Origin: Paracoccaceae bacterium | Lineage (GTDB): Bacteria; Pseudomonadota; Alphaproteobacteria; Rhodobacterales; Rhodobacteraceae | Length of the DNA stretch: 38,578 nucleotides | Reading direction: 5' to 3' | Assembly: GCA_007695345.1 (NCBI GenBank) | Contig: REDZ01000022.1 | Span: 1-38,578 of the forward strand | Shown here: in pieces, positions 2,854-36,424 of the stretch | How positions within the stretch are numbered: position 1 is the stretch's first letter | Layout: the number at the start of each line of letters is the position of its first letter | Program-made: the position numbers and the translations under genes | Notes under the pieces: model-generated | The model's input: only the letters and a program-made list of their open reading frames with translations | What the model was told of the DNA's origin: nothing | Databases searched by the model: none

Positions 2854-2924
2854 GGCCCGTCCGCCTGCCTTTGCCCGGCGCGCGGGTGGGTGGGTGGGGC
2901 GTGACGGGCAAAGGCAGGCGGACG
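2854..2924. repeat. Perfect 24-bp inverted repeat with G-tract loop (copy A)
   Basis: Arms 2854-2877 and 2901-2924 are exact reverse complements over 24 bp, and the loop is 23 nt. The loop and right arm carry GGGTGGGTGGGG followed by a fourth GGG at 2902-2904 on the plus strand, a possible G-quadruplex. It lies between the stop of the caspase-like gene and pyrF, both minus strand, so it could end the upstream transcript, although no long U-tract follows. Confidence 0.9.
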
Positions 2925-2942
2925 GGCCGGGAAGAGATCGGC

Positions 2943-4568
2943 TCAATTGAAGAACTCGCGGAACAGGTTGCTGACCAGCATCGTGAGCAGGGTCTGATCG
3001 ATATAGCCCGTCGGGCGCAGGTCAAAGCGCTCCTGCGCGCCGCGGATCGCGACGCGGGTCTGCGCATCGAACACACCATCGACCTGGCCGGGATCAAGCC
3101 CCAGCCGCGCCAGCCGCTGCTCGATCAAGAGCCGCGTGGGCTGGCTGAGCCCCAGTGCGGCCTCGGCAGCGCGGGCGCGCTCGACATCCGGGTCAACCGG
3201 AACCGGCAAGGGGTCGGGCGCAGGTTCCGGCTCGGGCCTCGGGCGCCGTTCTTCCAGGCGCGCGCGGGCCAGTTCGGCAAACTCGCCCTCGGGCCAGTCG
3301 CTCAGATAGCGCTCATAGGCTGCGACCGTATCGACCCGCCGCGCCAGCCGCCACGCATCCAGGTCGCGGTCGCGCGCGGCCTCGCGCGCTTCTGCATCGA
3401 TCCGGTCCAGCCGTTCGCGCGCAAGCCCTGCAAAGATGCCATCGGGATAGCGGTCCAGATAGCTGCGCAGTCCCGGAGCATCGCCCTCGGCCCCTGTCAT
3501 GGCCCAGAACTCGCGATCCGCGCGTTCTTCGCGCTCGCGCGCGGCGCGCTCCTCGGCCTCGACCTCGGCAGCGCGGTCCGCGGCCTGTGCGGCCAGTGCG
3601 AAAATCTGATCTCGGGTCAGATAGCGTGTCGGATCGCGGCCCGTTGCCTCTTGCCAGTCAGCGATCGAACCGCGCGTGCCGGGGCCGAAGATCCCGTCGA
3701 TACCGCGCGTATCATAGCCCAGAACGGACAGGTCGCGCTGGATCGCGCGGCGCTCGTCATCCGTCAGGAAAAGCTCGGCCTCGATCCGGTCGGGCGCGGT
3801 GCGAATCCGCTCCAGCGCCGCTTGCGCTTCCTCGGTGTGGGCTCCTTCGGGATAGGCCTCCAGATACTCCAGATAGGCCGCTTCGCTGTCGGTTTCGCGC
3901 GCGACCGCAAAGGCACGCTGATCGGCGCGCGCAAGCGGCGCGAAATCCTCGGGCAGAAAGGCCGTATCAAGTGCGGGCATCCCTTCGACGCTCAGGCTGG
4001 AATGCTGCTCCAGCACCTGCGACAGCGCGGTTCCGGGCTGCATCAGCGTCTCCAGCCCGCGCGCGATCTCAGCAGGCGGTCCCTTGACCACCCCGACCCC
4101 ATCGGGCAGCGCCCAGTCCTGTGGCAGGCCCGCGCGCATCCCCAACCCGAATTCACGCGCCGCCACCCGCTCCCCCAGCCAGACCAGTGCCGGGCCCTCT
4201 GCCTCGGACGCGATGGCAAAGACCGTGTCCAGCCGCAGTCCCTGCCCATCAGCGAGTGCGAGCGTGGGGCGGTCGCCCTCTGGTCCCAGCAGCCAGCCTG
4301 CATGGGGGGCGTGCGCGAAACTGCCCGACAGCACGACGATCACGCGGTCAGGCGTTTCGGCGCGGATCTCGGAATGGGCGCTGGCCAGATGGGCGCGCAT
4401 TTCATCGACCCCGGGATTGACGCCATGGATCACGTCAAAGCCCAGGTTGTCGAGCGTCGCCGCCGTCTGTTCCGACGCCGCGTCATCACCCAGGACCAGT
4501 GCGACCCCTGCGGCCTGCACCTGCGCTGCCCCCAGAAGGCACATCGCCACTACGACAACCGCGCGCAT
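2943..4568 (-). CDS. Secreted caspase-like (degenerate) protein with two peptidoglycan-binding domains
   Basis: A 541-residue exported protein. Residues 1-20 form a signal peptide ending in AQA-type sequence. Residues 21-130 look like a caspase/C14 fold (GVALVLGDDA at the first strand, LGFDVIHGVN at the second), but the expected Y-S-G-H-G catalytic-histidine segment reads LSGSFAH (80-86), so the histidine is missing. Two peptidoglycan_binding_1 domains follow, at about 269-305 (GYDTRGIDGIFGPGTRGSI) and 479-530 at the C terminus. Three copies of a short tetratricopeptide-like repeat (Y-L-x-x-YP-x-G-x-x-x-x-x-A-x-x-x-L) occur at about 232-255, 369-391 and 418-441. The start at 4568 was chosen over an upstream extension because GGAGG precedes it and the signal peptide begins there. 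It is probably periplasmic; its function is unknown. Confidence 0.8.
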   Translation of the reverse strand: MRAVVVVAMCLLGAAQVQAAGVALVLGDDAASEQTAATLDNLGFDVIHGVNPGVDEMRAHLASAHSEIRAETPDRVIVVLSGSFAHAPHAGWLLGPEGDRPTLALADGQGLRLDTVFAIASEAEGPALVWLGERVAAREFGLGMRAGLPQDWALPDGVGVVKGPPAEIARGLETLMQPGTALSQVLEQHSSLSVEGMPALDTAFLPEDFAPLARADQRAFAVARETDSEAAYLEYLEAYPEGAHTEEAQAALERIRTAPDRIEAELFLTDDERRAIQRDLSVLGYDTRGIDGIFGPGTRGSIADWQEATGRDPTRYLTRDQIFALAAQAADRAAEVEAEERAAREREERADREFWAMTGAEGDAPGLRSYLDRYPDGIFAGLARERLDRIDAEAREAARDRDLDAWRLARRVDTVAAYERYLSDWPEGEFAELARARLEERRPRPEPEPAPDPLPVPVDPDVERARAAEAALGLSQPTRLLIEQRLARLGLDPGQVDGVFDAQTRVAIRGAQERFDLRPTGYIDQTLLTMLVSNLFREFFN

Positions 4569-4791
4569 CTTCCCGCCCTCCGTGCCTGATCTGTCCCCTC
4601 GGGTCAGGCCAAGACTAGTCAGGCGCGGCGCTGCGCACAATCCCTGAATATGCCGGCGTTGTTTGTTCCGGCCGCGAATGCGCCAGCCCCTCAAGTCGGA
4701 CGGGGCCGCGGCACGCGCTGCAATGATTCCTGTTTACACTGGCCAAGGTTTTCGCGACGATGCGCCTTCCGGCGAGGACGACAGGAGCACG

Positions 4792-5253
4792 ATGCGCAAA
4801 TTTCTGGTCATTCTTGATGACAGCCGCGAATGTCTGAACGCCATGCGCTTTGCCGCGCTGCGCGCGGCGCATACGGGCGGGCAGGTGCAGATCCTGTCGA
4901 TCATCGCACCCGAGGAGTTTGCAGGCTGGATCGGGGTCGCCGATGTCATGCGGGCCGAGGCGCGCGAGCGGATCGAGGCGCATTTCGAGGTCTTTGCCAA
5001 ATGGATGCGCGACCGGCAGGGGATCGATCCGGAACTCGTGATCCGCGAAGGTGAACCGGTCGAACAGATACTGGCCCAGATCGCCGATGATCCCGAGATC
5101 GGCATTCTGGTGCTGGGCGCAGGCACCGAAGGCACAAGCCCCGGCCCGCTGGTCACGCAATTGTCGCGCAATTCCGGCAGCCTGCCCATCCCCATCACCA
5201 TCGTGCCCGGGGAATTGCCCCGCGACCGGCTGGAAGCGATCTCGAAAGGGTAG
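4792..5253 (+). CDS. Universal stress protein (UspA family)
   Basis: A 153-residue single-domain protein. The N terminus MRKFLVILDDSRECLNAMRF matches the first beta-strand and following aspartate of Usp domains. The C-terminal half has the second nucleotide-binding stretch, VLGAGTEGTSPGPL, and ends in the usual ITIVPG strand. Such proteins bind ATP or act in stress survival; the ligand cannot be told here. The ATG at 4792 is preceded by AGGAG; upstream codons in the same frame lack family similarity and were excluded. The gene is divergent from the caspase-like gene (223 bp between starts) and convergent with the thiolase. Confidence 0.85.
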   Translation: MRKFLVILDDSRECLNAMRFAALRAAHTGGQVQILSIIAPEEFAGWIGVADVMRAEARERIEAHFEVFAKWMRDRQGIDPELVIREGEPVEQILAQIADDPEIGILVLGAGTEGTSPGPLVTQLSRNSGSLPIPITIVPGELPRDRLEAISKG

Positions 5254-5295
5254 CGCTGCGCGTCACCTGTCGTCGGGCGCGGACGCATAGGGAAA

Positions 5296-5349
5296 AAGCG
5301 CCCGCTCGGGGACCCCTCCCACCCGCCCGTGCCCCGCTCGCGGGCGCTT
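5296..5349. repeat. Intergenic hairpin repeat with G-tract loop, shared-core class (copy B)
   Basis: Arms 5296-5305 and 5340-5349 pair over 10 bp. The minus strand of 5313-5328 reads GGGCGGGTGGGAGGGG: four G-tracts with one-base spacers. The stem core and loop are nearly identical to copies C (14502-14582) and G (27595-27646). A second small hairpin (GCCCCC/GGGGGC) follows at about 5350-5364. It lies between the 3' ends of the convergent usp and thiolase genes. Confidence 0.88.
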
Positions 5350-5396
5350 GCCCCCTGCGGGGGCCGGGGCAACCGGGCAGGGCCTGTGCGGCGCGT

Positions 5397-6572
5397 TCAG
5401 ATCCGTTCAAGCGACAGCGCGATCCCTTGTCCGCCCCCGATGCACATGGTCACCAGCGCGCGTTTTCCGCCGGTCCGGGCAAGTTCATAGAGCGCCTTGA
5501 TCGCGATGATCGCCCCCGTCGCGCCGACAGGGTGGCCCAGTGCGATGGCCCCGCCATTGGGGTTGACCCGCGCCGGATCAAGCCCCAGCGCCGCGCTGAC
5601 CGCGAGCGCCTGCGCGGCAAAGGCCTCATTCGATTCGATCACGTCGAAATCACCCGCGCTCAGCCCTGTGCGCGCCATCAACGCCTCGACCGCCGGGACC
5701 GGGCCGATCCCCATCACCTCGGGGCGCACCCCCGCATGGGCATAGCCGGTGATCCGCGCCAGCGGGCGCAGCCCGGCGCGTTCCGCGGCCTCGGCGCGTG
5801 CCAGCACCAGCGCCCCCGCCCCGTCATTCAGGCCGCTGGCATTGCCTGCCGTCACACTCCCGCCCTTCTGAAAGGCCGGGCGCAGGCCGGACAGGGCCTC
5901 GAACGTCGTGAGCTTGGGATGTTCATCGACCTCGAACACGATCTCGCCCTTGCGAGTGCGGACCGGCACGGGCACGATCTGATCGACAAAGCGCCCCTCC
6001 TCGATCGCGCGCGCGGCGCGGGTCTGGCTTTCGACGGCAAAGGCATCCTGCATCTCGCGGCTGACGCCATGCTCGCGCGCGACATTCTCCGCTGTCACGC
6101 CCATATGGCCCGTGCCGAAGGGACAGGTCAGCGCGCCCAGCATCATGTCAACCACGCCGGTATCACCCATCTTCTGCCCGAACCGCGCGGCAGGCAGCGC
6201 ATAGGGCGCGCGGCTCATGCTCTCGGCGCCGCCCACAAGCGCGAAATCGGCATCCCCCAGGGCCAGCGCCTGCATGCCCGAGACGATGGCCTGCACGCCC
6301 GACCCGCAGAGCCGGTTGACATTCATCGCCGGCACACTGTCGGGCACCCCGGCCCCCATGGCCGCACGGCGCGAGAGATACATGTCCGCAGGTTCCGTCG
6401 CGATGACAGTGCCGAAGACAGCGGTGCCGATCTGATCGGGGGCGATCCCGGCGCGGGCCATCGCCTCGGCCGCAGCGATGCGTGCAAGCTCGATGGGCGG
6501 CATCTGCGCCAGCGCGCCGCCGAAACTGCCGATGGCGGTGCGCGCCCCGCCGAGAATAACAATATCCTCCAT
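5397..6572 (-). CDS. Acetyl-CoA C-acetyltransferase (thiolase)
   Basis: A 391-residue thiolase that condenses two acetyl-CoA or cleaves 3-ketoacyl-CoA. All catalytic parts are visible: nucleophilic Cys89 in NRLCGSG, NEAFAAQ at 315-321, His347 in GGAIALGHPVG, and Cys377 in CIGGGQG. Length and the absence of an extra C-terminal loop fit the biosynthetic PhaA/AtoB/BktB group rather than the longer FadA form. The start ATG at 6570-6572 follows GGAGGGGG. No phaB or fadB is adjacent, so whether it serves polyhydroxybutyrate synthesis or degradation cannot be decided from context. Confidence 0.93.
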   Translation of the reverse strand: MEDIVILGGARTAIGSFGGALAQMPPIELARIAAAEAMARAGIAPDQIGTAVFGTVIATEPADMYLSRRAAMGAGVPDSVPAMNVNRLCGSGVQAIVSGMQALALGDADFALVGGAESMSRAPYALPAARFGQKMGDTGVVDMMLGALTCPFGTGHMGVTAENVAREHGVSREMQDAFAVESQTRAARAIEEGRFVDQIVPVPVRTRKGEIVFEVDEHPKLTTFEALSGLRPAFQKGGSVTAGNASGLNDGAGALVLARAEAAERAGLRPLARITGYAHAGVRPEVMGIGPVPAVEALMARTGLSAGDFDVIESNEAFAAQALAVSAALGLDPARVNPNGGAIALGHPVGATGAIIAIKALYELARTGGKRALVTMCIGGGQGIALSLERI

Positions 6573-6706
6573 GATAGCCCCCTCCGAATCTGCTGTGGAT
6601 CGCAGTCTATGATGGATGGGCGAGGCGATCCAGCACGACGCGGCGTTCCGGTGGGCATGTCAGGCAGGTAGAGGGTTAGCGGGTCCGAGCCCTGAGCGGA
6701 CTGTCG

Positions 6707-12931: not shown

Positions 12932-14458
12932 ATGGCCCAGCTTACCCCCGATTTCGCAACATTCGAGGCAGGCTGGGCGCGCGGCGAGAACCAGCTTGTC
13001 CACGCCCGTCTTGCCGCTGATCTGGACACGCCTGTGTCGCTCTACCTCAAGCTGGCCGGGGGCGCGCGCGACAGCTTCATCCTCGAATCGGTGACGGGCG
13101 GAGAAGTTCGCGGGCGCTATTCGATCATCGGCCTGAAGCCCGATCTGATCTGGGATTGCCATGGCAGCCAGAGCCGGATCAACCGCGCGGCCCGTTTTGA
13201 TCCCGACGGGTGGCAGGTGCTGGAGGGCGCGCCGCTCGACACGCTGCGCGCCCTGCTGGCAGAAAGCCGGATCGAGATGCCCGAGGGCCTGCCTGCGGCG
13301 GCTGCGGGGCTGTTCGGTTATCTGGGCTATGACATGATCCGCCAGGTCGAGCATCTGCCGAATGTAAACCCCGACCCGATCGGCGTGCCCGATGCGATGA
13401 TGCTGCGCCCGTCGGTGGTGGCCGTGCTGGACGGGGTGAAGGGCGAGGTGATCGTGGTGGCACCGGCCTGGGCGGCATCGGGACTGAACGCCCGCGCCGC
13501 CTATGCGCAGGCCGCCGAGCGGGTCATGGACGCAGTGCGCGATCTCGAACGCAGCCTGGCGCAGGCCCCGCGCGAATTGCGCAGCGATGCCGCGCCGATA
13601 GGCGCGCCGGACTCGAATTTCGCCAAGCCAGAGTATCTGGCAGCGGTCGAGCGGGCAAAGGAGTATATTCGCGCAGGCGATATCTTTCAGGTCGTGCCCT
13701 CGCAACGCTGGGCGCAGCGCTTTGCCCTGCCGCCCTTCGCGCTCTATCGTTCGCTGCGGCGCACGAACCCCTCGCCCTTCATGTTCTACTTCGATTTCGC
13801 CGCACAAGGCGGGCCGTTTCAGGTGGTCGGCGCAAGCCCCGAGATCCTTGTGCGGCTGCGTGAAGGCGAGGTCACGATCCGCCCCATCGCGGGCACCCGC
13901 CCGCGCGGCGCCACGCCCGAGGAAGATCGCGCGCATGAAACCGATCTGCTGGCCGACGAGAAGGAACTGGCCGAGCATCTGATGCTTCTGGACCTGGGGC
14001 GCAACGATGTGGGGCGCGTGGCAAAGATCGGCACTGTGCGCCCGACCGAGGAATTCATCATCGAGCGCTACAGCCATGTCATGCATATCGTCTCGAACGT
14101 CGTGGGCGAGTTGGCCGAGGGCGAGGACGCGCTGTCAGCCCTGCTGGCAGGTCTGCCAGCGGGCACCGTTTCGGGCGCGCCCAAGGTCCGCGCGATGGAG
14201 ATCATCGATGAGCTGGAGCCCGAAAAGCGCGGTGTCTATGGCGGCGGGGCGGGTTACTTTGCCGCCAATGGCGAGATGGACATGTGCATCTGCCTGCGCA
14301 CTGCCGTGCTGAAGGATGAAACCCTTTACATTCAGGCAGGGGGCGGCGTGGTCTATGACAGCGACCCCGAGGCCGAGTATCTGGAAACGGTCAACAAGTC
14401 GCGCGCCCTGCGCCGGGCCGCAGAGGATGCGGGCCGCTTTGCGGGCGGGAATGGCTGA
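12932..14458 (+). CDS. trpE: Anthranilate synthase component I
   Basis: A 508-residue chorismate-binding enzyme that makes anthranilate with the glutamine amidotransferase TrpG, the first committed step to tryptophan. Signature stretches: LFGYLGYDMIR in the N-terminal domain; RPIAGTRPRG, LDLGRNDVGR, KVRAMEIIDELEP and YGGGAGYF in the chorismate-binding domain; and IQAGGGVVYDSD near the end. The N-terminal tryptophan-binding segment LESVTGGE and LES-type motifs are present, consistent with feedback control. It follows ppiD by 4 nt. No trpG, trpD or trpC lies downstream in this window, so the partners must be elsewhere. Confidence 0.95.
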   Translation: MAQLTPDFATFEAGWARGENQLVHARLAADLDTPVSLYLKLAGGARDSFILESVTGGEVRGRYSIIGLKPDLIWDCHGSQSRINRAARFDPDGWQVLEGAPLDTLRALLAESRIEMPEGLPAAAAGLFGYLGYDMIRQVEHLPNVNPDPIGVPDAMMLRPSVVAVLDGVKGEVIVVAPAWAASGLNARAAYAQAAERVMDAVRDLERSLAQAPRELRSDAAPIGAPDSNFAKPEYLAAVERAKEYIRAGDIFQVVPSQRWAQRFALPPFALYRSLRRTNPSPFMFYFDFAAQGGPFQVVGASPEILVRLREGEVTIRPIAGTRPRGATPEEDRAHETDLLADEKELAEHLMLLDLGRNDVGRVAKIGTVRPTEEFIIERYSHVMHIVSNVVGELAEGEDALSALLAGLPAGTVSGAPKVRAMEIIDELEPEKRGVYGGGAGYFAANGEMDMCICLRTAVLKDETLYIQAGGGVVYDSDPEAEYLETVNKSRALRRAAEDAGRFAGGNG

Positions 14459-14501: not shown

Positions 14502-14582
14502 GCCGAAGGGGAAAAAGCGCCCGCTCGGGGCCCCACCCACCCGCCCATGGCCCGCTCGCGGGCGCTTGCTGCCGCCTTCGGC
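14502..14582. repeat. Intergenic hairpin repeat with G-tract loop, shared-core class (copy C)
   Basis: The inner arms 14515-14524 and 14558-14567 match those of copies B and G. An outer pair, GCCGAAGG (14502-14509) and CCTTCGGC (14575-14582), extends the structure. The minus strand of 14531-14546 reads GGGCGGGTGGGTGGGG. It lies 3' of trpE and may end or weaken that transcript before the protease gene. Confidence 0.88.
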
Positions 14583-14668: not shown

Positions 14669-15361
14669 ATGCTGAAGCTCACACCCATCCTGCTGCTGAT
14701 CGGCTACGGTCTGGTGATGTTCTGGTTCTCTTCCTGGCGGACGCGCAAGGAACTGGACCAGCGCTCCTCACCGCTGGCCGATGCACGGCTGAAAACGCTG
14801 ACGGACCGCTTTGCCGATGCCATCGGCGTGCAGAAGGTGCTGGTGCATATCTACGAGATCGAGCCGGTGAACGGGCTGGCTGCACCCGATGGGCGCATCT
14901 TCATCACACGCGGGTTCTATAACAAGTACCGTCAGGGCGAGGTGTCTGCCGAGGAAATGTCGACAGTGATCGCGCATGAGCTGGGGCATGTCGCGCTGGG
15001 CCATACGCGCAAGCGGATGATCGATTTCTCCGGTACAAACGCGATCCGGATGGCGCTGGCCACAATCTTCAACCGGTTCCTGCCGGGGCTGGGCGTTATC
15101 GTTGCGAATTTCATCACCACCCTGCTGATGGCACGACTGTCGCGAGATGACGAATACGAGGCCGATGCCTATGCCTCGGCCCTTCTTGTCAAAGCCGGGA
15201 TCGGCACCGAGCCGCAGAAATCGCTGTTTCGCAAACTCGACCGGCTGGTGGGCATGGGCGGGGGTGCACCCGCCTGGATGATGAGCCACCCGAAAACCGA
15301 AGACCGCATCCGCGCGATCGAGGAGAATGAAGCGCGCTGGCAAATCTCGCCTGGACCTTGA
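14669..15361 (+). CDS. M48 family membrane metalloprotease
   Basis: A 230-residue zinc protease. An N-terminal membrane anchor (about 4-22) is followed by the metzincin-like HELGH motif at 103-107, with the third ligand expected at E162 in [11 protein letters not shown] second hydrophobic segment lies at about 125-155. The C-terminal region [11 protein letters not shown] is the SHP-x-x-x-x-R-I signature of M48 enzymes. It is shorter than HtpX. No strong Shine-Dalgarno precedes the ATG at 14669. Substrates are unknown; the family acts in membrane or envelope protein quality control. Confidence 0.88.
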
Positions 15362-15375
15362 GCATCTGCACCCCG

Positions 15376-15449
15376 CCCGCCCTCACCCCGCGCGGGCGGG
15401 GTGCAAGGGTGGGTGGGCGGGCACACCGGCCGCGCGGGGTGTGGGCGGG
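15376..15449. repeat. 20-bp inverted repeat with G-tract loop (copy D)
   Basis: Arms 15376-15395 and 15430-15449 pair with a single mismatch. A competing stem, 15368-15380 with 15392-15404, is 13 bp and perfect. The loop holds GGGTGGGTGGGCGGG at 15407-15421 on the plus strand. It sits between the convergent M48 protease and edd genes. A smaller hairpin (GCCCCC/GGGGGC, 15478-15494) follows, closer to edd. Confidence 0.87.
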
Positions 15450-15530
15450 CATGGCCGCAGACGGGGGTGCGCCCCTCGCCCCCATCGAGGGGGCTCGGGC
15501 CGCGTCGGGACGTTGCCCTCCGGCCAAACC

Positions 15531-17336
15531 TCAGACGGCGACCCCGGCCCCTTGCGTCGAATCGCCCACATTGGCGCGGAAGGCCGCGAACAGCTCGCGC
15601 CCGATCCCGAAACCATTGGCGCCCAGATCAACCTCGACCGGTGCGCGCGCCTCGAATCCTTCGGCCAGAACCTCCAGCCGCCCGGCCACGGCATCCACGC
15701 GCACAAGATCGCCGTCGCGCAGCCGCGCAAGCGGCCCAGCCTTGGCAGCCTCTGGGGCGACATGGATCGCGGCGGGCACCTTGCCGCTCGCCCCCGACAT
15801 CCGACCGTCGGTCACAAGCGCCACCTTGTGCCCACGCTCCTGCAGGATGCCCAGCAAGGGGGTGAGCGAGTGCAGCTCGGGCATCCCGTTCGCTGCAGGG
15901 CCCTGGAACCGCACCACGACGACGACATCGCCCGTGAACTCGCCTGCGCGGAATGCCTCTTTCACGCTGGCCTGATCGTGGAAGATGCGCGCGGGCGCCT
16001 CGATCACATGGCGCGCGGGGTCCACGGCAGAGACCTTGATCACGCCCTGCCCCAGATTGCCGCTGAGTTGCTTCAGCCCGCCCGCTTTCTGGAACGCTTC
16101 GCGCGCCGGGCGCAGGATCTTGGTGTTCTGGCTTGCGCCTGCGCCATCTTCCCAGACCAGCGTGCCATCCTTCAGCCGAGGCTCCTGCGCGTAGCGCGCC
16201 AGACCGTCCCCCGCGACCGTGCTGACATCATCATGCAGCAGCCCCTCGCCCAGCAATTCCCCGATCATGAACCCGAGGCCCCCTGCGGCATGGAAATGGT
16301 TCACATCGGCCAGGCCATTGGGATACACCTTGGCCATCAGCGGTACCACGTCCGAGATCTCGGCAAAGTCCTCAAGCGCCAGTTCGATCCCTGCGGCGCG
16401 CGCCATGGCGGGCAGATGCAGCACCAGATTGGTCGAACCGCCCGTGGCCATCAGCCCCACGATCCCGTTCACGAAGGCACGTTCATCCAGCACCTGACCT
16501 GCCGGGCGATAGTCATTTCCCTGCGCCGTGATGGCCAGCGCGCGTTCGGTCGCGGCCACGGTCAGGGCCTCGCGCAGCGGCGTTCCGGGATTGACAAAAG
16601 CCGCGCCGGGCAGGTGCAACCCCATGAACTCCATCAGCATCTGGTTCGTGTTGGCGGTGCCGTAGAAGGTGCAGGTGCCGGGGCCGTGATAGCTGGCCAT
16701 CTCGGCCTCCATCAGCTTGTCGCGCCCGATCTGCCCTTCGGCGAATTGCTGGCGCACCCTGGCCTTTTCATCATTGGGCAGCCCGCTGGTCATCGGCCCT
16801 GCAGGTATAAAGACCGAAGGCACATGGCCAAAGGTCGCCGCCGCGATCACCAGCCCCGGCACGATCTTGTCACACACCCCCAGCCACACGGCTGCATCAA
16901 AGCAGTTATGCGACATCGCCACCCCGGCCGACAGCGCAATCACATCGCGCGAAAAGAGCGACAGTTCCATACCAGGCTGGCCCTGGGTCACCCCGTCGCA
17001 CATGGCGGGCACCCCGCCTGCAACCTGCGCGGTGCCGCCCGCTGCGCGGGCGGCCTGGCGGATGATCTCGGGGTAATGCTCGAACGGCTGATGCGCTGAC
17101 AGCATGTCGTTATAGGCCGTCACGATCCCCAGATTGGGCGCGCGCCCACCGGCCAGCGTGTCCTTGTCCGCACCCATTGCGGCATAGGCATGGGCCTGAT
17201 TGCCGCATGAGAGATGCGCGCGCACTGGCCCTGCATCGGCTGCGGCCTGCATCCGCTCCAGATAGGCAGAACGGCGCGGGGCCGAACGGGCGCGGATACG
17301 ATCGGTGACGGATTCGATAACGGGGTGCAGGGGCAT
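15531..17336 (-). CDS. edd: Phosphogluconate dehydratase (Entner-Doudoroff)
   Basis: A 601-residue IlvD/Edd family dehydratase that converts 6-phosphogluconate to KDPG, using an iron-sulfur cluster. It is identified as Edd by length and by stretches such as [53 protein letters not shown] and [20 protein letters not shown] paralogue, IlvD, lies at 34.5-36.2 kb and differs in these stretches. The start at 17336 follows AGGAGAG. No eda, zwf or pgl gene is adjacent, although these often group with edd. Its promoter region carries a clear palindromic operator. Confidence 0.95.
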
Positions 17337-20290: not shown

Positions 20291-20360
20291 CGGGGTGGGT
20301 TGCCACCCACCCTACGCCGCCCGATCCGGTGTCCCGTAGGGTGGGTGAAACCCACCCCGG
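20291..20360. repeat. Palindromic intergenic repeat (GTAGGGTGGGT type)
   Basis: Two arms, 20291-20316 and 20335-20360, pair over 10 and 12 bp, with a small internal mismatch, around an 18-nt loop. Each arm is itself largely palindromic (GTGGGT/ACCCAC). This sequence type is widespread in Proteobacteria as a REP-like element. It sits between the PIN gene and the transposase remnant and could also end the PIN transcript. Confidence 0.8.
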
Positions 20361-24594: not shown

Positions 24595-27063
24595 ATGAAC
24601 GCCCCGATGATTCCGCCCCGGACCCATAGCCTGTCAATCACCGGCATGACCTGCGCGTCCTGCGTGGGCCGTGTCGAACGCAGGTTGCAAAGCGTCGAGG
24701 GGGTGATTTCGGCGCAAGTCAATCTTGCCGCCGAACGCGCCGACATTCAGGCGGCGGAGCATGTCACCCGCGACGCGCTTGTCCATGCGGTCGAGGCGGC
24801 AGGCTATGACGTGCCCGCCTCCGAGATCGAACTGAGTATCGAAGGGATGCATTGCGCATCCTGCGTGGGCCGGGTCGAACGCGCGCTGGCGGGCGTGCCC
24901 GGCGTGGCACAGGCGCAGGTCAACCTTGCCACCGAACGGGCGCGCGTCACTGGCCATCCCGACCCCGCAGCCCTGATTGCCGCAATCGAGTCCACGGGTT
25001 TTGCCGCGCAGGAACGCCGGGCGGAACGCACCGACACCCTGTCCGAACGCCGCGAGGCCGAGGCGGCCGCGTTGCAACGCGATGTCTTTATCGCAGCCGC
25101 GCTGACCTTGCCGGTGTTCGTGCTGGAAATGGGCGCGCACATGATCCCGGCGCTGCATCATCTGATCATGCACAGCATCGGCACACAGGCCAACTGGCTG
25201 ATCCAGTTCGCACTGACCACGCTGGTTCTGGCCCTGCCGGGGCGGCAGTTCTACCTGCAGGGATTTCCGGCGCTGGCACGCGGTGCGCCAGACATGAACA
25301 GTCTTGTGGCCGTGGGCACCTCGGCAGCCTGGCTGTATTCGATTGTGGCGACCTTTGCGCCCGGTCTGCTGCCCGAGGGCACTGTCAATGTGTATTACGA
25401 GGCCGCCGCCGTGATCGTCACGCTGATCCTTGTGGGCCGCTGGCTGGAGGCGCGCGCCAAGGGCCGCACCTCGCAGGCGATTCAGCGGCTGATCGGGTTG
25501 CAGCCCCGCACCGCCCGCGTGCTGCGCGAAGGCGTGCTGGTCGATCTGCCGGTCGCGGATGTGGTGCAAGGCGATGTGCTGGCCCTGCGCCCCGGCGAGC
25601 GTGTGCCGGTTGATGGCACCGTGACCGAGGGCGACAGCTATATCGACGAATCCATGATCACCGGAGAGCCGGTGCCCGTGGCCAAGGGTCCCGGCGCGCA
25701 GGTCACGGGCGGCACGATCAACCAGACCGGTGCGCTGCGCTTTCGCGCCACCGCGGTCGGCGGCGATACGATGCTGGCGCAGATCATCCGCATGGTCGAG
25801 GCCGCGCAGGGCGCCAAGCTGCCCATTCAGGCGCTGGTGGACCGGGTGACGCTGTGGTTCGTGCCTGCAGTGATCGCTGTGGCGCTCGTCAGCTTCACCG
25901 TCTGGCTGGCCTTTGGCCCGGCCCCTGCCCTGACCTTTGCGCTGGTCAATGCCGTGGCGGTCCTGATCATCGCATGTCCCTGCGCGATGGGACTGGCCAC
26001 GCCGACCTCGATCATGGTGGGCACGGGGCGCGGGGCCGAAATGGGCGTGCTGTTTCGCAAGGGCGAGGCGCTGCAACGCCTGCGCGACGCGCAGGTGGTG
26101 GCCTTTGACAAGACCGGCACGCTGACCGAGGGGCAGCCGCGCCTGACCGATCTGGACCTGTGTGACGGCTTCGAGCGTGACGCGGTGCTCGCCCGGATCG
26201 CGGCGGTCGAGGCGCAATCCGAACACCCCATCGCCCGCGCGATCGTCGCGGCCGCCGAGGGGCTGGACCTGCCGCCCGTCACAGGTTTCGCGGGGCAGAC
26301 CGGATATGGCGTTACCGCCGATGTGGCAGGCACGCGGGTCGAGATCGGGGCAGACCGCTACATGGCCCGGCTGGGCCATGACGTGAGCGTCTTTGCCGAA
26401 ACGGCCGCGCGCCTGGCGGAGGAGGGGAAATCCCCCCTCTATGCCGCCATCGGCGGCAAGCTGGCCGCGATCATCGCCGTGGCCGATCCGATCAAGGACA
26501 GCGCCCCCGATGCCATCCGCGCGCTGCAGGCGCAGGGGCTGCGTGTTGCGATGATCACGGGCGACAATGCCCGTACGGCCCATGCCATCGCGCGCAAGCT
26601 GGGCATAGATGATGTGGTGGCCGAGGTTCTGCCCGATGGCAAGGTTGACGCCCTGCGCAGCCTGCGCGCGCAGGGCACGCTGGCCTTTGTGGGCGACGGG
26701 ATCAATGACGCGCCCGCACTGGCCGAGGCCGATGTGGGCATCGCCATCGGCACCGGCACCGATATCGCGATCGAGGCGGCGGATGTCGTGTTGATCTCGG
26801 GCGCGCTGTCGGGCGTGCCGAATGCGATTGCGCTGTCGAAAGCGACGTTGCGCAATATCCGGCAGAACCTGTTCTGGGCCTTTGCCTACAACACGGCGCT
26901 GATCCCGGTCGCGGCGGGGGTGCTGTACCCCGCCTTTGGCCTGCTGCTGTCACCGGTCTTTGCGGCAGGCGCCATGGCGCTGTCATCGGTGTTTGTGCTG
27001 GGCAATGCGCTGCGCCTGCGCGGCTGGCGGCCACCCCTGGCGACAGAAAGGAGTACGGCATGA
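24595..27063 (+). CDS. copA: Copper-exporting P1B-type ATPase
   Basis: An 822-residue ATPase that pumps Cu(I) out of the cytoplasm. Two N-terminal metal-binding domains carry GMTCASC (C20, C23) and GMHCASC. The membrane metal site CPC is in [13 protein letters not shown], the phosphorylated aspartate in [10 protein letters not shown], with SEHPIARAI (HP locus), and [10 protein letters not shown] near the hinge. The ATG at 24595 has AAAGG seven bases upstream, better spaced than the ATGs at 24589 or 24565. The stop overlaps the cueR start (ATGA), so the two genes are coupled and the sensor is under the same CueR promoter. Confidence 0.96.
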
Positions 27064-27467
27064 ATATCGGAGAGGCGGCCAAAGCCTCGGGCGTGTCGGC
27101 CAAGATGATCCGCTATTATGAAGAAATCGGGCTGATCCCGCCTGCTGCGCGCAGCGGTGCGGGCTACCGGCAATATTCGGATCAGGATGTGCATATGCTG
27201 CGCTTCATCCGACGCGCCCGCGATCTGGGCTTCGCGGTCGAGGGGATTCGCGAGTTGCTGGGCCTCTGGCGGGACCAGTCGCGCCACAGCGCCGATGTGA
27301 AACAGCTTGCGATGGCGCATGTCACTGATCTGCGCCGCAAGATCGCCGAGCTGGAGGATATGGCCGCGACGCTGGAAACGCTTGCGCGCGCCTGCCACGG
27401 CAATGACCGCCCCGATTGCCCGATCCTGTCCGAGTTGGAGGCGCCCGCAGACATGCCGGCAGACTGA
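27060..27467 (+). CDS. cueR: MerR-family copper regulator CueR
   Basis: A 135-residue regulator. The N-terminal MerR helix-turn-helix ([20 protein letters not shown]) is followed by a dimerisation helix. The Cu(I)-binding loop C112-HGNDRPD-C120 and Ser77, the residue that marks monovalent-ion sensors of this group, are present. It activates copA. Because it is downstream of copA in the same operon, its own level should rise with copper. The gene is followed by a hairpin with a T-tract. Confidence 0.95.
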
Positions 27468-27594: not shown

Positions 27595-27646
27595 AGCGCC
27601 CGCTCGGGGGCCCCTCCCGCCCGCCCATGCCCCGCTCGCGGGCGCT
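27595..27646. repeat. Intergenic hairpin repeat with G-tract loop, shared-core class (copy G)
   Basis: Arms 27595-27603 and 27638-27646 match copies B and C. The minus strand of 27611-27626 reads GGGCGGGCGGGAGGGG. Outer partly complementary bases (GCGCATTCCCGC and GCGGGATGCGC) flank it. It lies between convergent cueR and lctP. Confidence 0.87.
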
Positions 27647-27683: not shown

Positions 27684-29123
27684 TCAGACCAGCAGCAACA
27701 GGATCAGCCCGCAAAGTGCAGCATAGCCCAGCACCGGGACCAATGTGCGCCGCAGCACAGCCCCCTCCTGCCCCGACAGCCCGACGGTCGCCGTGCCCGC
27801 GATGATGTTATGCGGCGCAATCGCGTTGCCGATCGCGGCCCCCACCCCCTGCGCCGCCGCCATCAGCACCAGCGGCAGATCCAGCGCGCGGGCCGTCGCG
27901 GCCTGAAACTCGGTGAACAGGATATTGGACGCCGTGGCAGATCCGCTGACGAATGTGCCCAACGCCCCCACCGCAGGCGCAAGCAGGGGCCAGAGCGCAC
28001 CGGCCGCCGCCGCGCCCGCTGCCGCCTGCTCGATCAGCCCGCCCTGCACCATCAGCCGCGCCAGCATCAGCATGACCAGCAGCGCAAGCGCCACGGGTGC
28101 AAGCCTGCGTATCGCCGCCGCCACCGCAGGTCCCAGCACAGCCGCGCGCCCTGTCAGCAGGCTGGAGGCCACGAGCCCCAGCACCAGCAATGTGCCGGGG
28201 TGATAAAGCGGCGCAATTCCGCCCGAAAACGCGCCCCAGTCCCAGCCCCACCACAGGCCCGACAGCCATGCCTGCACCGGCGCGACCAACCGTGTCAGCA
28301 ACACCAGACACAGGATCAACAGATAGGGCATCAGATCGGCCAGGTGCCACCCTTGCTGCGGCCCCTTGCGCCGCACCACCAGCGCAAACAGCGCCCCACC
28401 GATCAGCGCACCGCCCAGGCTGGGCAGCTCCGGCCCCGCAAGCCAGGCCAGCGCCAGCGCGGGCAGCGCGAAACACGCCGCCGCCAACAGCGCCAACCCG
28501 ACCTGCCTGCGCGACAGCGGCCCGTCGCTGGCCAACCGCATCACGGCCAGCGCGAGGAAAGACAGCGGCACCAGATGCAGCGCCATGGTCCAGCCCGCCA
28601 GGTCACGCGCCGCCACATCCAGCATCCCGATCTGCGCCAGCGCGGGTGTGCCCACCGCGCCGAAGGACACGCCCCCTGCATGGCCCAGAAGCGCCAGCGC
28701 AACAGCCCGCACAGGCGCAAAGCCCAAACCCACCAGCAAGGGCGCGGCCAGCGCGACCGGGGTGCCGAAACCTGCCGCCCCTTCCATGAACAACCCGAAA
28801 AACCACGCGATCAGCAGGGCCTGCACGGCGCGATCATCGCTGATCTGTGCCAGCGCCGCGCGCAGCCGGTCCAGCGCGCCCACGCGCGATTGCAGCTCAT
28901 AGATCGCCAGCGCGGGCAGGATGATCCACAGGATCGTGGCCGTGCTGCTGGCCGCTTCCAGCGCGACACCCGCCAGCAAGCGCCCTTCCAGCCCCGCGCC
29001 GCCCCAGACGACCGCAAGCGCGACCGCCAGCCCCGCGGCACCGGCCAGCGCCGCGCGCCAGTGCAGCACGGCCATGGCCAGCAGCACCACCAGAAGCGGC
29101 AGGCTTGCAAGCGCAGCCTGCAT
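27684..29123 (-). CDS. L-lactate permease family transporter
   Basis: A 479-residue LctP-type permease with about 12 hydrophobic helices. Family marks are FFGLFMEGAAGFGTPVALAAPLL, ALLGHAGGVSFGAVGTP, and near the end GSATASNILF and GNAIAPHNIIAGTATVGL. It is somewhat shorter than E. coli LldP. The ATG at 29123 lies one base after the stop of the D-lactate dehydrogenase gene (TAG-G-ATG), so the two form an operon for making and moving lactate; direction of transport is unknown. Confidence 0.9.
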   Translation of the reverse strand: MQAALASLPLLVVLLAMAVLHWRAALAGAAGLAVALAVVWGGAGLEGRLLAGVALEAASSTATILWIILPALAIYELQSRVGALDRLRAALAQISDDRAVQALLIAWFFGLFMEGAAGFGTPVALAAPLLVGLGFAPVRAVALALLGHAGGVSFGAVGTPALAQIGMLDVAARDLAGWTMALHLVPLSFLALAVMRLASDGPLSRRQVGLALLAAACFALPALALAWLAGPELPSLGGALIGGALFALVVRRKGPQQGWHLADLMPYLLILCLVLLTRLVAPVQAWLSGLWWGWDWGAFSGGIAPLYHPGTLLVLGLVASSLLTGRAAVLGPAVAAAIRRLAPVALALLVMLMLARLMVQGGLIEQAAAGAAAAGALWPLLAPAVGALGTFVSGSATASNILFTEFQAATARALDLPLVLMAAAQGVGAAIGNAIAPHNIIAGTATVGLSGQEGAVLRRTLVPVLGYAALCGLILLLLV

Positions 29124-32145: not shown

Positions 32146-32189
32146 TGCGTGAATGACATGCTAATCTGCACTCGCGATGCGTGAACGAC
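32146..32189 (+). repeat. 12-bp direct repeat at the LytTR gene start
   Basis: TGCGTGAATGAC (32146-32157) and TGCGTGAACGAC (32178-32189) differ at one base and start 32 bp apart, about three helical turns. LytTR proteins bind direct repeats, so this may be a self-control site. The second copy overlaps the start codon, and chance is possible. Confidence 0.35.
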
Positions 32190-32935: not shown

Positions 32936-32995
32936 GCGCAGCGAGTCACTGGCCTGCGGGTGTTTCCGCGTGCCGGAAGCCAGCCCCACGCGCAG

Positions 32996-33007
32996 ATCTT
33001 GCAAGAT
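32996..33007. other. Perfect 12-bp palindrome
   Basis: ATCTTGCAAGAT lies in the 273-bp spacer between the LytTR gene and the site-2 protease gene. No other structure was seen there. It may be an operator, but there is no further support. Confidence 0.3.
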
Positions 33008-33208
33008 GAAACAGGGGCGTAGGGATATCTGCGCGCGATTAGCCAGGGCGGGGCGCGGATGGGTGATCCCCCGTCGCGCAGTTGTCCGGCCTGATAACCG
33101 CGCAGCAGACGCCACGTCATTGCTGCCAGGCGCGTCACGCTGCCCTCTTGAACGCGGGCTGAGCCATGCCCACTGATAAGGAACGGAGCGAATGCAGGGG
33201 ATGTCACG

Positions 33209-34303
33209 ATGGAATGGTCAGGCTGGTCGCTGAAACTGGGTCGCGTGGCCGGGATCGATCTTTACATGCACGCGACCTTTCCGCTGCTGTTCGTCTGGGT
33301 CGGGTTCATCTACTGGGCACAGACCGGCACCGCCGAGGGCGTGCTGTTCGGCCTGAGCTTCATTGCAGTGCTGTTCCTGTGCGTCGTGCTGCATGAATAC
33401 GGCCATGCCCTGACTGCGCGGCATTATGGGATCGGGACGCGCTACATCACGCTTCTGCCCATCGGCGGGCTTGCCGCGCTGGAGCGGATGCCCAAGGACC
33501 CAAGGCAGGAAATCATCGTCGCCATGATGGGCCCTGCGGTCAATGTGGTGATCGCGCTGGGCCTGTTCCTTGTTCTGTCTTTGATCGGCGGCTGGGCCCC
33601 GATGGAGATGGACACCCCCCTGATGATGCCCGCGAATTTCCTGCAAAGCGTGCTGTTTGCCAATATCTTTCTGGCCGTGTTCAACATGATCCCGGCCTTT
33701 CCCATGGATGGCGGGCGCGTGCTGCGGGCGGCACTCAGCTTCCGCATGGGCCGCGCACCGGCGACGCAGCTTGCCGCCCGCGTGGGCCAGAGTGTCGCGA
33801 TTGTCTTTGGCCTGATCGGGCTCTTTGGCAATCCGCTGCTGATCCTGATTGCAGTGTTCATCTGGATCGGCGCGGCGGCAGAGGCCGGCGCTTCGGATAT
33901 CGAGGCGCGGCTGCAACGCAAACCCGTCGCCCGCGCCATGATCACCGATTTCCAGACCCTGCCCCCGGACGCGCCGCTGGCGCGCGCCGTGGACATGACC
34001 ATCGCGGGCAAGCAGAAGGATTTTCCGGTGCTCTCGGGCGGGCGACTGGTGGGTGTGGCACATCAGACCGCGATCCTGCGCGGGTTGCGCGATCACGGGC
34101 TGGCGGGGCGCGTGGGCGATATCATGGCCGTGCCGGTGACGGCAGATGCCACGGCAGAACTGTCGGAACTGATGATGGATCTGCAGCGCGAGGAAGAGGC
34201 GCGGCTGGTTTGCGTTCTGGAACGTGGCGCGCTGGTCGGCGTGATCGATATGGAAAATATCTCGGAATTCCTGCGCATTCAGGCGGCCCTGCGCGAGGGT
34301 TGA
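33209..34303 (+). CDS. Site-2 protease (M50 family) with CBS domain
   Basis: A 364-residue integral-membrane zinc protease. HEYGH at 62-66 gives two zinc ligands, and the third, D167, is in NMIPAFPMDGGR. About six transmembrane helices lie in the first 220 residues. The C-terminal region, about 235-360, contains two CBS-like repeats (VARAMITDFQTLPPD, VGDIMAVPV). Proteins of this type cleave anti-sigma factors or similar membrane proteins; the target is unknown. AGGGGA precedes the ATG. Confidence 0.88.
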   Translation: MEWSGWSLKLGRVAGIDLYMHATFPLLFVWVGFIYWAQTGTAEGVLFGLSFIAVLFLCVVLHEYGHALTARHYGIGTRYITLLPIGGLAALERMPKDPRQEIIVAMMGPAVNVVIALGLFLVLSLIGGWAPMEMDTPLMMPANFLQSVLFANIFLAVFNMIPAFPMDGGRVLRAALSFRMGRAPATQLAARVGQSVAIVFGLIGLFGNPLLILIAVFIWIGAAAEAGASDIEARLQRKPVARAMITDFQTLPPDAPLARAVDMTIAGKQKDFPVLSGGRLVGVAHQTAILRGLRDHGLAGRVGDIMAVPVTADATAELSELMMDLQREEEARLVCVLERGALVGVIDMENISEFLRIQAALREG

Positions 34304-34312
34304 CACCGGGCC

Positions 34313-34337
34313 AGGCGCAGGGCGTAGCCCTGCGCCT
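34313..34337. terminator. Perfect 11-bp hairpin after the site-2 protease gene
   Basis: AGGCGCAGGGC and GCCCTGCGCCT (34313-34323, 34327-34337) pair exactly around a 3-nt loop. No T-tract follows. A close relative lies at 34448-34466, next to the ilvD stop, suggesting a shared repeat in this convergent spacer. Confidence 0.65.
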
Positions 34338-34447
34338 CCGAAAGCGGTGCTCTCATGATACCTGCCTCACCGTCTGCGCCCGGATCTATTGCGCCGCTGC
34401 CAGGGCAACCCGCCCGGCGCGGCGCATTCTCTCAGGGCCGGGTCACA

Positions 34448-34466
34448 CGCAGGGCGCAGCCCTGCG
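34448..34466. terminator. 8-bp hairpin near the ilvD stop
   Basis: CGCAGGGC and GCCCTGCG pair around GCA. It shares the GCAGGGC core with the hairpin at 34313-34337. It is 11 bp from the stop of ilvD, whose transcript it could end. Confidence 0.55.
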
Positions 34467-34477
34467 CCACCGGATCC

Positions 34478-36211
34478 TCACAGATCCATATAGACATGCT
34501 CTTCATCGCGCGCGCCCGGATGGGTGACGGCCCCCAGCCGGGTCGATCCCACCTGCTGGGCGTATTTCCACAGCGCACCCGAGGCATAAATCGTCTTGCG
34601 CGGGCCTGACCAGGCTTCCTTGCGCCGGGCCAGTTCCTCATCCGGCAGGTCAACGCTCAGGCTGCCGCTCAGCGCGTTGATGGTGATGACATCGCCATCG
34701 CGCAACAGCGCGATCGGGCCGCCATGCGCGGCCTCGGGGCCGACATGGCCCACGCAGAACCCGCGCGTCGCCCCCGAAAAGCGACCATCCGTGATCAGCG
34801 CCACCTTCTTGCCGCGCCCCTGCCCGCTGATGGCGGCAGTGGTGGCCAGCATCTCGCGCATGCCGGGGCCGCCTGCGGGGCCCTCATTGCGGATGACGAT
34901 TACCTCGCCATCATTGTATTCGCGCGCCTTGACGGCGGCAAAAGCCTCTTCCTCGGATTCGAACACGCGTGCAGGCCCGGAGAAGACCTGTTCCTCCTCG
35001 CTCATGCCCGCGACCTTCACGATGGCGCCTTCGGGGGCCAGATTGCCCTTCAGCCCGACAACGCCCCCGGTTTGCGTGATGGGCGCAGTGACCGGATGGA
35101 TCACGCGGCCATCGGCCTCGCGCTCCACGCGGTCAAGCTCTTCGCCGATGCTGCGGCCCGTGACGGTCATGCAATCCTCATGGACCAGCCCGGCGCGGCG
35201 CAACTCGTTCATCACCACGGGCACCCCGCCGGATTCATACAGATCCTTGGCGACATATTTCCCGCCCGGTTTCAGGTCCACGAAATAAGGTGTGTCACGG
35301 AAAATGTCGCAGACATCCATCAGGTCGAAATCGATCCCGGCCTCATGCGCGATGGCGGGCAGGTGCAGCCCGGCATTGGTGGACCCGCCCGTGCAGGCCA
35401 CGACACGCGCGGCATTCTCCAGCGATTTGCGGGTGACGATATCACGGGCGCGGATGTTGCGCTCGATCAGTTGCATGACCGCCACGCCAGACGCTTCACA
35501 ATACTGATCGCGCGATTCGTAGGGTGCAGGCGCGCCGCTGGAATTGGGCAGCGCCAGACCGATGGCCTCGGACACGCAGGCCATCGTGTTGGCAGTGAAC
35601 TGCCCGCCACAGGCCCCGGCCGAAGGGCAGGCCACACGCTCCAGGATCGCCAATTGCGCATCAGAGTAATTGCCCGCCTGATGCTGGCCCACAGCCTCGA
35701 ACACATCCTGCACGGTCACGTCGCGGCCATCCAGTCGCCCCGGCAGGATCGAACCGCCATAGATGAACACCGAAGGCGTGTTCAGCCGCACCATGGCCAT
35801 CATCATCCCCGGCAGCGACTTGTCACACCCCGCCAACCCCACCAGCGCGTCATAGCAATGCCCGCGCATGGTCAGTTCGACCGTATCGGCAATCGCCTCG
35901 CGCGAGGCGAGGCTGGAGCGCATCCCCTCATGCCCCATGGCGATCCCGTCCGTAACCGTGATGGTGGTGAATTCGCGCGGCGTGCCCTGCCCCATCTTGA
36001 CGCCATGCTTGACCGCCTGCGCCTGCCGGTTCAGCGCGATGTTACAGGGCGCGGCCTCGTTCCAGCAGGTGGCGACACCGACCCAGGGCTGGTGAATTTC
36101 TTCCTCGGAAATCCCCATCGCATAGAAATAAGATCGATGCGGCGCCCGCGCCGGGCCTTCGGTCACATGGCGTGACGGCAGGCGGGACTTGTCGAAACGG
36201 TTCTGGCTCAT
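34478..36211 (-). CDS. ilvD: Dihydroxy-acid dehydratase
   Basis: A 577-residue iron-sulfur dehydratase of branched-chain amino-acid synthesis. Signatures: [63 protein letters not shown] and [17 protein letters not shown]. These distinguish it from the Edd paralogue at 15.5-17.3 kb. The frame is open to 36400, but the ATG at 36209-36211 follows GGAGG and starts at the family's usual point, [20 protein letters not shown]. The spacer upstream holds a large inverted repeat but no leader peptide was recognised. Confidence 0.95.
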
Positions 36212-36317
36212 GGGGGTCCTCCCGATACTGAATTCCCCAACGGGATACCTGCGCCGCCCCCTCGGGGCAAGCGGCAAACCGGCCCTTCCGCCCTCTGCGC
36301 GCGCCCCCGCATCTGCC

Positions 36318-36424
36318 CCCGGCGGCCCGGCGCGCGCGCGGATGTGGCAAGCAAACGCCCGGAACGGGCGTGCAGCGAGGGTTGGGTGGGCGGGCCACAT
36401 CTGCGCGCGCGCCGGGCCGCCGGG
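36318..36424. repeat. 31-bp inverted repeat with G-tract loop (copy H)
   Basis: Arms 36318-36348 and 36394-36424 pair at 30 of 31 positions. The loop contains a 7-bp hairpin (ACGCCCG/CGGGCGT) and the plus-strand run GGGTTGGGTGGGCGGG (36379-36394). It lies between the ABC ATPase stop and the ilvD start, both on the minus strand, so it could end the ABC operon transcript. Confidence 0.9.

What the first reader, a model, noticed from the sequence alone, without database searches (positions are those of the whole stretch)
2854..36424. Six intergenic inverted repeats whose loops carry four-tract G motifs
Spacers at 2854-2924, 5296-5349, 14502-14582, 15376-15449, 27595-27646 and 36318-36424 each hold a long stem with a loop reading GGG-N1/2-GGG-N-GGG-N-GGG on one strand (copy A has a longer last spacer). 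Stems in A, D and H are unrelated to each other, while the G-tract loop recurs. Compensating arms around a constant G-rich apex suggest selection for structure: a hairpin that presents a G-quadruplex on one strand. All six lie at gene 3' ends. The density (six in 38 kb) suggests a genome-wide element. This is the best candidate here for an undescribed system; its function is inferred, perhaps transcription ending, mRNA 3'-end protection or chromosome structure.
Basis: partly seen in the sequence, partly recalled or inferred. Interest (0 to 1): 0.72.

Follow-up and report, generated by a model that had tools for sequence, protein, structure and literature searches.

The report
G-quadruplex-capped hairpins at gene ends
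In one family of bacteria, many genes end in a DNA hairpin whose stem can have almost any sequence but whose tip keeps a four-G-tract motif on one preferred strand, which points to a DNA structure, not found described in the papers searched, that marks the end of a gene.

Summary
The window's genome has 75 GGG-N(1-2)-GGG-N-GGG-N-GGG matches; of 70 merged sites 65 have hairpin arms or the class 2 stem. The motif is far above chance (5 against 0.03), though the arms of sites B, C and E fold no better than shuffles. There are three architectures: simple hairpin with free arms, hairpin with a semi-conserved stem, and three-way junction. The layout recurs across Rhodobacteraceae genera (0 to 160 matches per genome); none of 380 genomes of other alphaproteobacterial families exceeds 5 (stricter pattern). 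G-tracts are kept while arms change with compensation or are replaced at the same gene end.

The G-rich strand is the template strand of the gene that ends there (tandem pairs 76:15). Inner hairpins carry DNA-type GNA triloops on the G strand (17 of 21; none on the other).

Best reading: a quadruplex-capped DNA hairpin on the template strand acts as a one-way transcription boundary. Structure and polarity are shown; function is inferred. Rivals: an mRNA 3' hairpin with a C-rich loop, or arms made by template switching. Ten literature searches found no description.

The parts
2854..2928 (+). Site A, class 1 (simple hairpin): 30-nt arms, 93% paired, loop GGGTGGGTGGGTGGGG on +. Follows the 3' end of gene 2943-4568 (-), upstream of pyrF 2120-2821 (-)
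   Evidence: z -8.3
5296..5349 (-). Site B, class 2 (semi-conserved stem AAGCGCCCGC-GA-...G4...-GA-GCGGGCGCTT). Convergent spacer between 4678-5253 (+) and the thiolase gene 5397-6572 (-)
   Evidence: fold z -0.9
14502..14582 (-). Site C, class 2. Follows trpE 12932-14458 (+), upstream of the M48 peptidase gene 14669-15361 (+)
   Evidence: fold z -1.7
15375..15450 (+). Site D, class 1: 30-nt arms, 90% paired, loop GGGTGGGTGGGCGGG on +. Convergent spacer between 14669-15361 (+) and edd 15531-17336 (-)
   Evidence: z -6.0
27595..27646 (-). Site E, class 2. Convergent spacer between the MerR-type regulator gene 27060-27467 (+) and the lactate permease-type gene 27684-29123 (-)
   Evidence: fold z -0.9
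36318..36424 (+). Site H, class 3 (three-way): outer arms 31 nt at 97%, inner hairpin ACGCCCG-GAA-CGGGCGT, tract GGGTTGGGTGGGCGGG abutting the outer 3' arm. Follows the ABC transporter ATPase gene 36431-38071 (-)
   Evidence: z -8.1

Best explanation
The elements are DNA structural boundary elements at gene 3' ends. The G-rich strand, which is the template strand of the gene that ends there, can fold into a long hairpin or three-way junction whose cap is a four-tract G-quadruplex (by the recalled rule for G3 tracts with 1-2 nt loops, a three-tetrad parallel one). Shown by sequence: the layout, tract conservation, arm compensation, gene-end position, strand polarity, and DNA-type GNA triloops on the G strand. 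Inferred: that the quadruplex forms in cells; that RNA polymerase reading past the stop codon meets or exposes the folded template strand and stalls, so that the element stops read-through and, at convergent pairs, collisions; that the stem's job is to nucleate and hold the fold, which is why any complementary arms will do.
For: Arms: 65 of 70 merged sites of the own genome have arms of score 12 or more or the class 2 stem. Permuted left/right flanks reach score 12 in 1.7% of cases against 42 of 67 real sites. Inverted repeats with arms of at least 22 nt in 643 kb: 20 of 23 have a G4 loop; two of the other three are a three-way and a degenerate copy (stretches were chosen around sites). Tracts: of 41 elements of sister genome G001 (of its 70), 30 have an intact same-orientation counterpart in G000 and one an inverted one, against 13 expected at 91% identity. 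Arms: 6 WC-to-WC double changes. At one gene end in 4 genera stems differ but pair; 3 keep four tracts (pairing partly by eye). Polarity: tandem -G- 76 vs +G+ 15 without G001; other genera alone 36:4. Strand that folds: 21 of 24 inner hairpins are triloops, 17 of these GNA in G-sense, 0 in C-sense; other spacer hairpins 27 of 99 triloops, 10 of 27 GNA or its complement. d(GNA) triloops are reported as very stable in DNA (passages of PMC5815330; of PMC11101458).
Against: In E. coli a (G3T)8 tract formed quadruplex on transcription and was about 350-fold more mutable when the G strand was the NON-template strand, and supercoiling alone did not form it (passages of PMC7023247). Template placement may thus be the quiet orientation. 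Stem wobble pairs do not favour the G strand once 10 nt near the loop are left out (class 1: G.T 26, A.C 25; class 2: 21, 28). In the sister comparison 21 pairs lost Watson-Crick pairing on one side (10 to G.T, 5 to A.C, 6 to other mismatches) and 9 gained it by one change. U-tract terminators are as common with elements (5 of 65) as without (21 of 274). They are rarer than in relatives at convergent ends (8 of 108 vs 37 of 196), but relatives' loci of 65% GC or more are similar (9% of all ends). Many genomes of the family lack the motif (140 of 394). Genome G015, with amplified copies, is not polarised (6:4). The GNA rule fails in genome G096 (0 of 2). In G096 permuted flanks also reach score 12 in 10% of cases, because many copies share a stem.
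Confidence: 0.42

Rival explanations
1. RNA element: the mRNA ends in a long hairpin with a C-rich loop (CCCNCCCNCCCNCCC) that is bound by a protein or protects the 3' end after Rho-type termination. The G strand matters only because it encodes that loop.
For: The polarity fits equally well: the gene's mRNA carries the C-rich loop. The hairpin starts close to the stop codon (median distance from the G-tract to the gene end 37 nt in G000). At the amidohydrolase/agmatinase junction the 3' arm covers the likely Shine-Dalgarno site of the next gene (by eye).
Against: GNA triloops and, by eye, tandem GA mismatches of class 2 are on the G-sense strand. The loop is four tracts of three with 1-2 nt spacers, the quadruplex rule. 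No clear U-tract follows the class 1 stem in C-sense (T at 24 of 68, then 12 of 68).
Confidence: 0.27
2. Mutational by-product: a G-quadruplex stalls replication, and template switching writes and repairs perfect inverted arms around it. The arms have no function; the tracts persist for another reason.
For: Two of 25 orthologous elements have the loop on the other strand with arms kept or rewritten (L035, L072), as template switching would do. Three of six more distant pairs have wholly different stems. Template switching can create and maintain hairpins (abstract of PMC8794818). Sites lie near contig ends more often than expected (6 of 75 within 100 bp, 1.06 expected) and poly-G runs replace some loops, as if polymerases stall there.
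Against: Tract conservation (31 of 41 vs 13 expected), polarity 76:15 and the repeated three-way layout with GNA loops are not predicted by mutation alone. Class 2 stems stay similar between genera.
Confidence: 0.18
3. Mobile repeat of the REP/RAYT or MITE kind that spreads in spacers.
For: Class 2 has a semi-conserved stem in 28 of 70 own sites; G015 carries amplified copies of one stem (by eye).
Against: No Y1 transposase (PF01797) in 9 of 10 element-rich genomes tested; G001 has one over the cut-off. Classes 1 and 3 have unrelated arms. 24 of 25 orthologous places are still occupied, in a set enriched for occupied ones.
Confidence: 0.06
4. Binding site for a nucleoid or chromosome-organising protein, unrelated to transcription.
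For: Genome-wide scatter; patchy copy number across genera.
Against: Position at gene 3' ends with strand polarity relative to the gene.
Confidence: 0.07

Closest known systems
Intrinsic (Rho-independent) transcription terminators
   Same: Long GC-rich inverted repeat just after the stop codon, arms free to vary
   Different: No clear U-tract after the class 1 stem; 15-16 nt G-tract loop; constant loop with free stem; polarity set by the template strand
Repetitive extragenic palindromes (REP/BIME) with RAYT transposases
   Same: Intergenic palindromes, many copies, 3' ends
   Different: Arms unrelated between copies in classes 1 and 3; no Y1 transposase in 9 of 10 element-rich genomes tested
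GGGNATC quadruplex repeats of Xanthomonas and Nostoc (PMC4692102; abstract and passages read)
   Same: G-tract repeats with four units preferred, in spacers, near stop codons, CD evidence of quadruplex; some occur as inverted pairs that could form stem-loops
   Different: 7-nt period (0 matches here); the inverted arms are the repeats themselves, not free arms around a G-tract loop; close to the stop codon they lie on the sense strand, the opposite polarity
Intrastrand triplex motif TM-ECO (PMC4666352; abstract and two sections read)
   Same: G/C-rich folded single strand, many bacterial copies
   Different: Pattern CCCTCNCCC-loop-GGGNGAGGG-loop-GGGNGAGGG; 0 exact matches in 643 kb or in 191 element contexts
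Quadruplex-duplex hybrids (recalled, no call)
   Same: Quadruplex stacked directly on a hairpin stem
   Different: Recalled as designed or isolated cases, not as a genome-wide bacterial element

Membership tests
Intrinsic terminator | Inverted repeat downstream of a stop codon | tested here: met
Intrinsic terminator | U-tract directly after the stem | tested here: not met
   Class 1, C-sense: T at 24 of 68 first and 12 of 68 second bases. Class 2 has a short T run on the G-sense side (31 and 23 of 49) but not in C-sense
Intrinsic terminator | Ends transcripts | not testable with these tools
   no RNA data
REP/RAYT | Conserved palindrome sequence between copies | tested here: inconclusive
   met for class 2, not met for classes 1 and 3
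REP/RAYT | RAYT (Y1) transposase in the genome | tested here: not met
   0 matches in G000; of ten element-rich genomes tested only G001 has one over the cut-off
TM-ECO triplex motif | CCCTCNCCC, then GGGNGAGGG twice | tested here: not met
   pattern; 0 exact matches in 643 kb and in 191 element contexts (no mismatch allowed)
GGGNATC quadruplex repeats | 7-nt period of GGGNATC | tested here: not met
   three units in a row: 0 in 643 kb and in 191 contexts
Rfam RNA families | Match at gathering score | tested here: not met
   window 0 matches; regions of sites C, D and H only sub-threshold matches
G-quadruplex | Four G3 tracts with 1-2 nt loops | tested here: met
G-quadruplex | Folds in vitro or in cells | not testable with these tools
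   needs CD/NMR; (G3T)4 folding during transcription of the G-sense is reported in PMC7023247 (passages)

The most novel reading that the evidence does not exclude
Rhodobacteraceae use a DNA-level gene-end signal: a G-quadruplex held on the template strand by a sequence-free hairpin or three-way junction that stops RNA polymerase from one direction, i.e. a terminator read as DNA shape and not as an RNA hairpin plus U-tract.
Probability: 0.35. Interest if true: 0.88.

Novelty: categorically new. Interest (0 to 1): 0.74.

Why it matters
Selection for a folded DNA shape is hard to show in genomes. Here it shows three ways: arms covary while the tip is fixed, one strand is chosen relative to the gene, and loop types fit DNA. 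If the mechanism holds, it gives natural, testable cases of a G-quadruplex with a defined genetic role in bacteria, and a kind of gene boundary that terminator predictors built on U-tracts would miss. It also warns that such sites may break or corrupt short-read assemblies (contig ends, poly-G loops). The novelty rating concerns the structural element and rests on the families tested here and on ten searches of an open-licence library; its role may be an old one, ending transcripts.

Tried and rejected
Chance or base composition: rejected. A single mobile repeat: rejected for classes 1 and 3, partly true for class 2 and G015. RNA G-quadruplex terminator of the gene read in G-sense: rejected, because tandem pairs would then be mostly +G+ and they are 15 of 91. 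Stem wobble asymmetry as a strand test: no signal in the stem body (26 vs 25 in class 1), only next to the loop (17 vs 1 within 6 nt) and in class 3 (9 vs 0), so it gets little weight. Mutual exclusion with U-tract terminators: not seen. Lower U-terminator use than relatives: seen at convergent ends but confounded by GC. Protein structure prediction was not used.

Limits of the counts. My first count of kept tracts (24 of 25 in either orientation) was biased, because G001 stretches were fetched around G001 sites; the fairer count is 31 of 41 G001 sites against the complete site list of G000. In the other direction 24 of 29 G001 sites had an intact same-orientation G000 counterpart; of the five others two were inverted, one poly-G and two altered. 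The 70 merged sites come from 75 by joining overlapping matches and identical cores. Polarity counts leave out 26 sites without two known neighbours or inside a called gene; an earlier pool held one G001 site by mistake (L095), removed, which changed +G- from 68 to 67 and nothing else. The 20 sites from other genera were picked by hand from the list, mostly leaving out GGGC-only places, so 17 of 20 with arms is not a random sample. Class labels are my own regular expressions and differ slightly. Gene calls are my own codon model, not an annotation. Genomes with 10 or more sites and sites near contig ends were counted by eye.
Full report
What is there. All six sites of the finding exist. The motif GGGHGGGHGGGHGGG occurs five times in the window against 0.03 expected by dinucleotide shuffles; the sixth has one 2-nt spacer. 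The three longest inverted repeats of the window are sites A, D and H, which fold far better than shuffles as DNA (z -8.3, -6.0, -8.1). Sites B, C and E do not (z -0.9, -1.7, -0.9).

The whole genome. The window is one contig of a 3.26 Mb draft with 231 contigs. It has 75 motif matches; a looser pattern counts more because of poly-G runs. Its TrpE is 92% identical to that of Natronohydrobacter thiooxidans. After merging overlapping matches and identical cores, 70 sites were examined: 65 have paired arms of score 12 or more or the class 2 stem. Of the five others, two are cut off at contig ends, one is in a coding region, one looks like a class 2 variant and one stands beside another hairpin. 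Arm scores of real flanks (42 of 67 at 12 or more) are matched by 1.7% of permuted flank pairs. In 643 kb, chosen around sites, 23 inverted repeats have arms of at least 22 nt: twenty enclose the motif, one is a three-way copy, one a degenerate copy and one a different palindrome.

Three architectures. Class 1 is a simple hairpin with unrelated arms and the tract abutting or nearly abutting the stem. Class 2 has a semi-conserved stem, AAGCGCCC...GGGCGCTT, often with a tandem GA/GA internal loop on the G strand and a small variable hairpin before it. Class 3 is a three-way layout: outer stem, short linker, inner hairpin, short linker, tract, outer stem. Constrained folding gave the three-way topology for 26 elements outside G001, in several genera, with stems of unrelated sequence (four of them, L036, L251, L255 and L314, are doubtful by eye).

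Distribution. Of 35 genomes of the same genus 34 have at least one match and 16 have ten or more; G015 has 160. Of 392 genomes from other genera of the family, 25 have ten or more (129 in G096), counted by eye; 140 of the 394 searched have none. Among 380 genomes of other alphaproteobacterial families none exceeds 5, with a slightly stricter pattern. Sites of other genera show the same arms: 18 of 25 at score 12 or more in a sample of nine match-rich genomes, and 25 of 28 in G096, where permuted flanks also reach it in 10%. Of 27 further sites in the same genus 17 reach score 12, and 21 do so or have the class 2 stem. Hand-picked sites of other genera, mostly low-copy: 17 of 20. Of the 80 titled loci fetched round trpE only one, in N. 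thiooxidans, holds the motif.

Evolution. Flanks of G000 and its sister G001 are about 91% identical. Of 41 G001 elements (of 70 in that genome), 30 have an intact same-orientation counterpart in G000 and one more is inverted; about 13 would be expected to stay intact without constraint. The other ten may reflect loss, change or gaps in a 91%-complete draft. In 22 aligned pairs, 554 base pairs show 7 double changes, 6 of them Watson-Crick to Watson-Crick, where independence predicts 0.95 double changes; one-sided changes broke or weakened 21 pairs and restored 9. Of six more distant pairs (72-82% flank identity) three keep the tract with wholly different stems: L039/L092, L007/L097 and L037/L119. 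At the end of an amidohydrolase gene followed by an agmatinase gene, four genera have stems that differ but pair; three keep four tracts and the fourth has lost two of them. Twenty other loci at the agmatinase start show no such motif; several of these have another neighbour upstream. Two of 25 orthologous elements have the tract on the other strand, and one element is lost.

Polarity. By my gene calls the gene on the 3' side of the G strand reads into the element. Pooling everything but G001, pairs with both neighbours known are -G- 76, +G- 67, +G+ 15, -G+ 7. Tandem pairs alone give 76:15, p about 5e-11; other genera alone give 36:4. G015, with amplified copies, is not polarised (6:4). So the G strand is the template strand of the gene that ends there, and its mRNA carries a C-rich loop. 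This speaks against a simple RNA-quadruplex terminator of that gene.

Which strand folds. Inner hairpins of three-way elements have triloops in 21 of 24 cases; 17 are GNA in G-sense and none is GNA in C-sense. By group: 9 of 9 in G000, 7 of 9 in the genus, 1 of 1 in the family sample, 0 of 2 in G096. Other spacer hairpins of this genome have triloops in 27 of 99, and 10 of 27 are GNA or its complement. Seven inner hairpins share the loop G(GAA)C, so the 17 are not fully independent. d(GNA) triloops are reported as very stable in DNA (passages of PMC5815330, and PMC11101458). This favours the G strand folding as DNA. Stem wobble pairs give no clear strand signal.

Mechanism. The best-supported reading is a template-strand quadruplex-capped hairpin that acts as a one-way transcription boundary. 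Not shown: folding in cells, and any effect on RNA polymerase. Against it, in E. coli a (G3T)8 tract formed quadruplex and was about 350-fold more mutable when the G strand was the non-template strand (passages of PMC7023247), so the observed orientation may be the one that avoids trouble during transcription. The chief rivals are an mRNA 3' hairpin whose C-rich loop is the signal, and arms written by template switching at a stalled fork (abstract of PMC8794818). The loop inversions support the latter as a way arms arise, and it is compatible with selection keeping the structure.

Signs of polymerase stalling. Six of 75 matches lie within 100 bp of a contig end (1.06 expected; positions, counted by hand). 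Some hairpins in the draft carry 11-22 G in place of the tract; one of these has an ordinary tract in G001. This is consistent with sequencing failure at the fold but does not prove it.

Literature. Ten searches of the held open-licence library listed no paper that describes such an element. Nearest are the GGGNATC repeats (abstract and passages of PMC4692102), the TM-ECO triplex (abstract and two sections of PMC4666352) and inverted-repeat surveys (passages of PMC13155455, and PMC6060812). Most subscription papers, and preprints, were not searchable.

Noticed in passing
window 20293-20358; L064 7970-8035: A different palindrome, GTAGGGTGGGTG...CACCCACCCTAC-like, in two spacers; it resembles a REP-type sequence (recalled) and is not the element of the finding.
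   Followed up: no
L002, L004, L012, L026 (G000 contigs C5, C7, C30, C31): Poly-G runs of 11-22 inside hairpin arms where the tract is expected; at one place (C31) sister genome G001 has an ordinary tract. Possible short-read artefact at folded DNA.
   Followed up: partly
L335-L354 (genome G015): Several copies of one stem, AAAGCGCCCTCGGGGCGTGC-G4-GCACGGCCCGAGGGCGCTTT, at gene ends in either orientation, as if a repeat spread from this element.
   Followed up: partly
L355, L324, L356, L358 upstream of the agmatinase start: The 3' arm of the element covers the likely Shine-Dalgarno sequence of the next gene, so read-through mRNA could also be blocked in translation (by eye).
   Followed up: no
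L035 and L072 (G000) versus L281 and L212 (G001): The G-tract loop is on opposite strands in two sister genomes at the same gene end, with arms kept or rewritten.
   Followed up: partly
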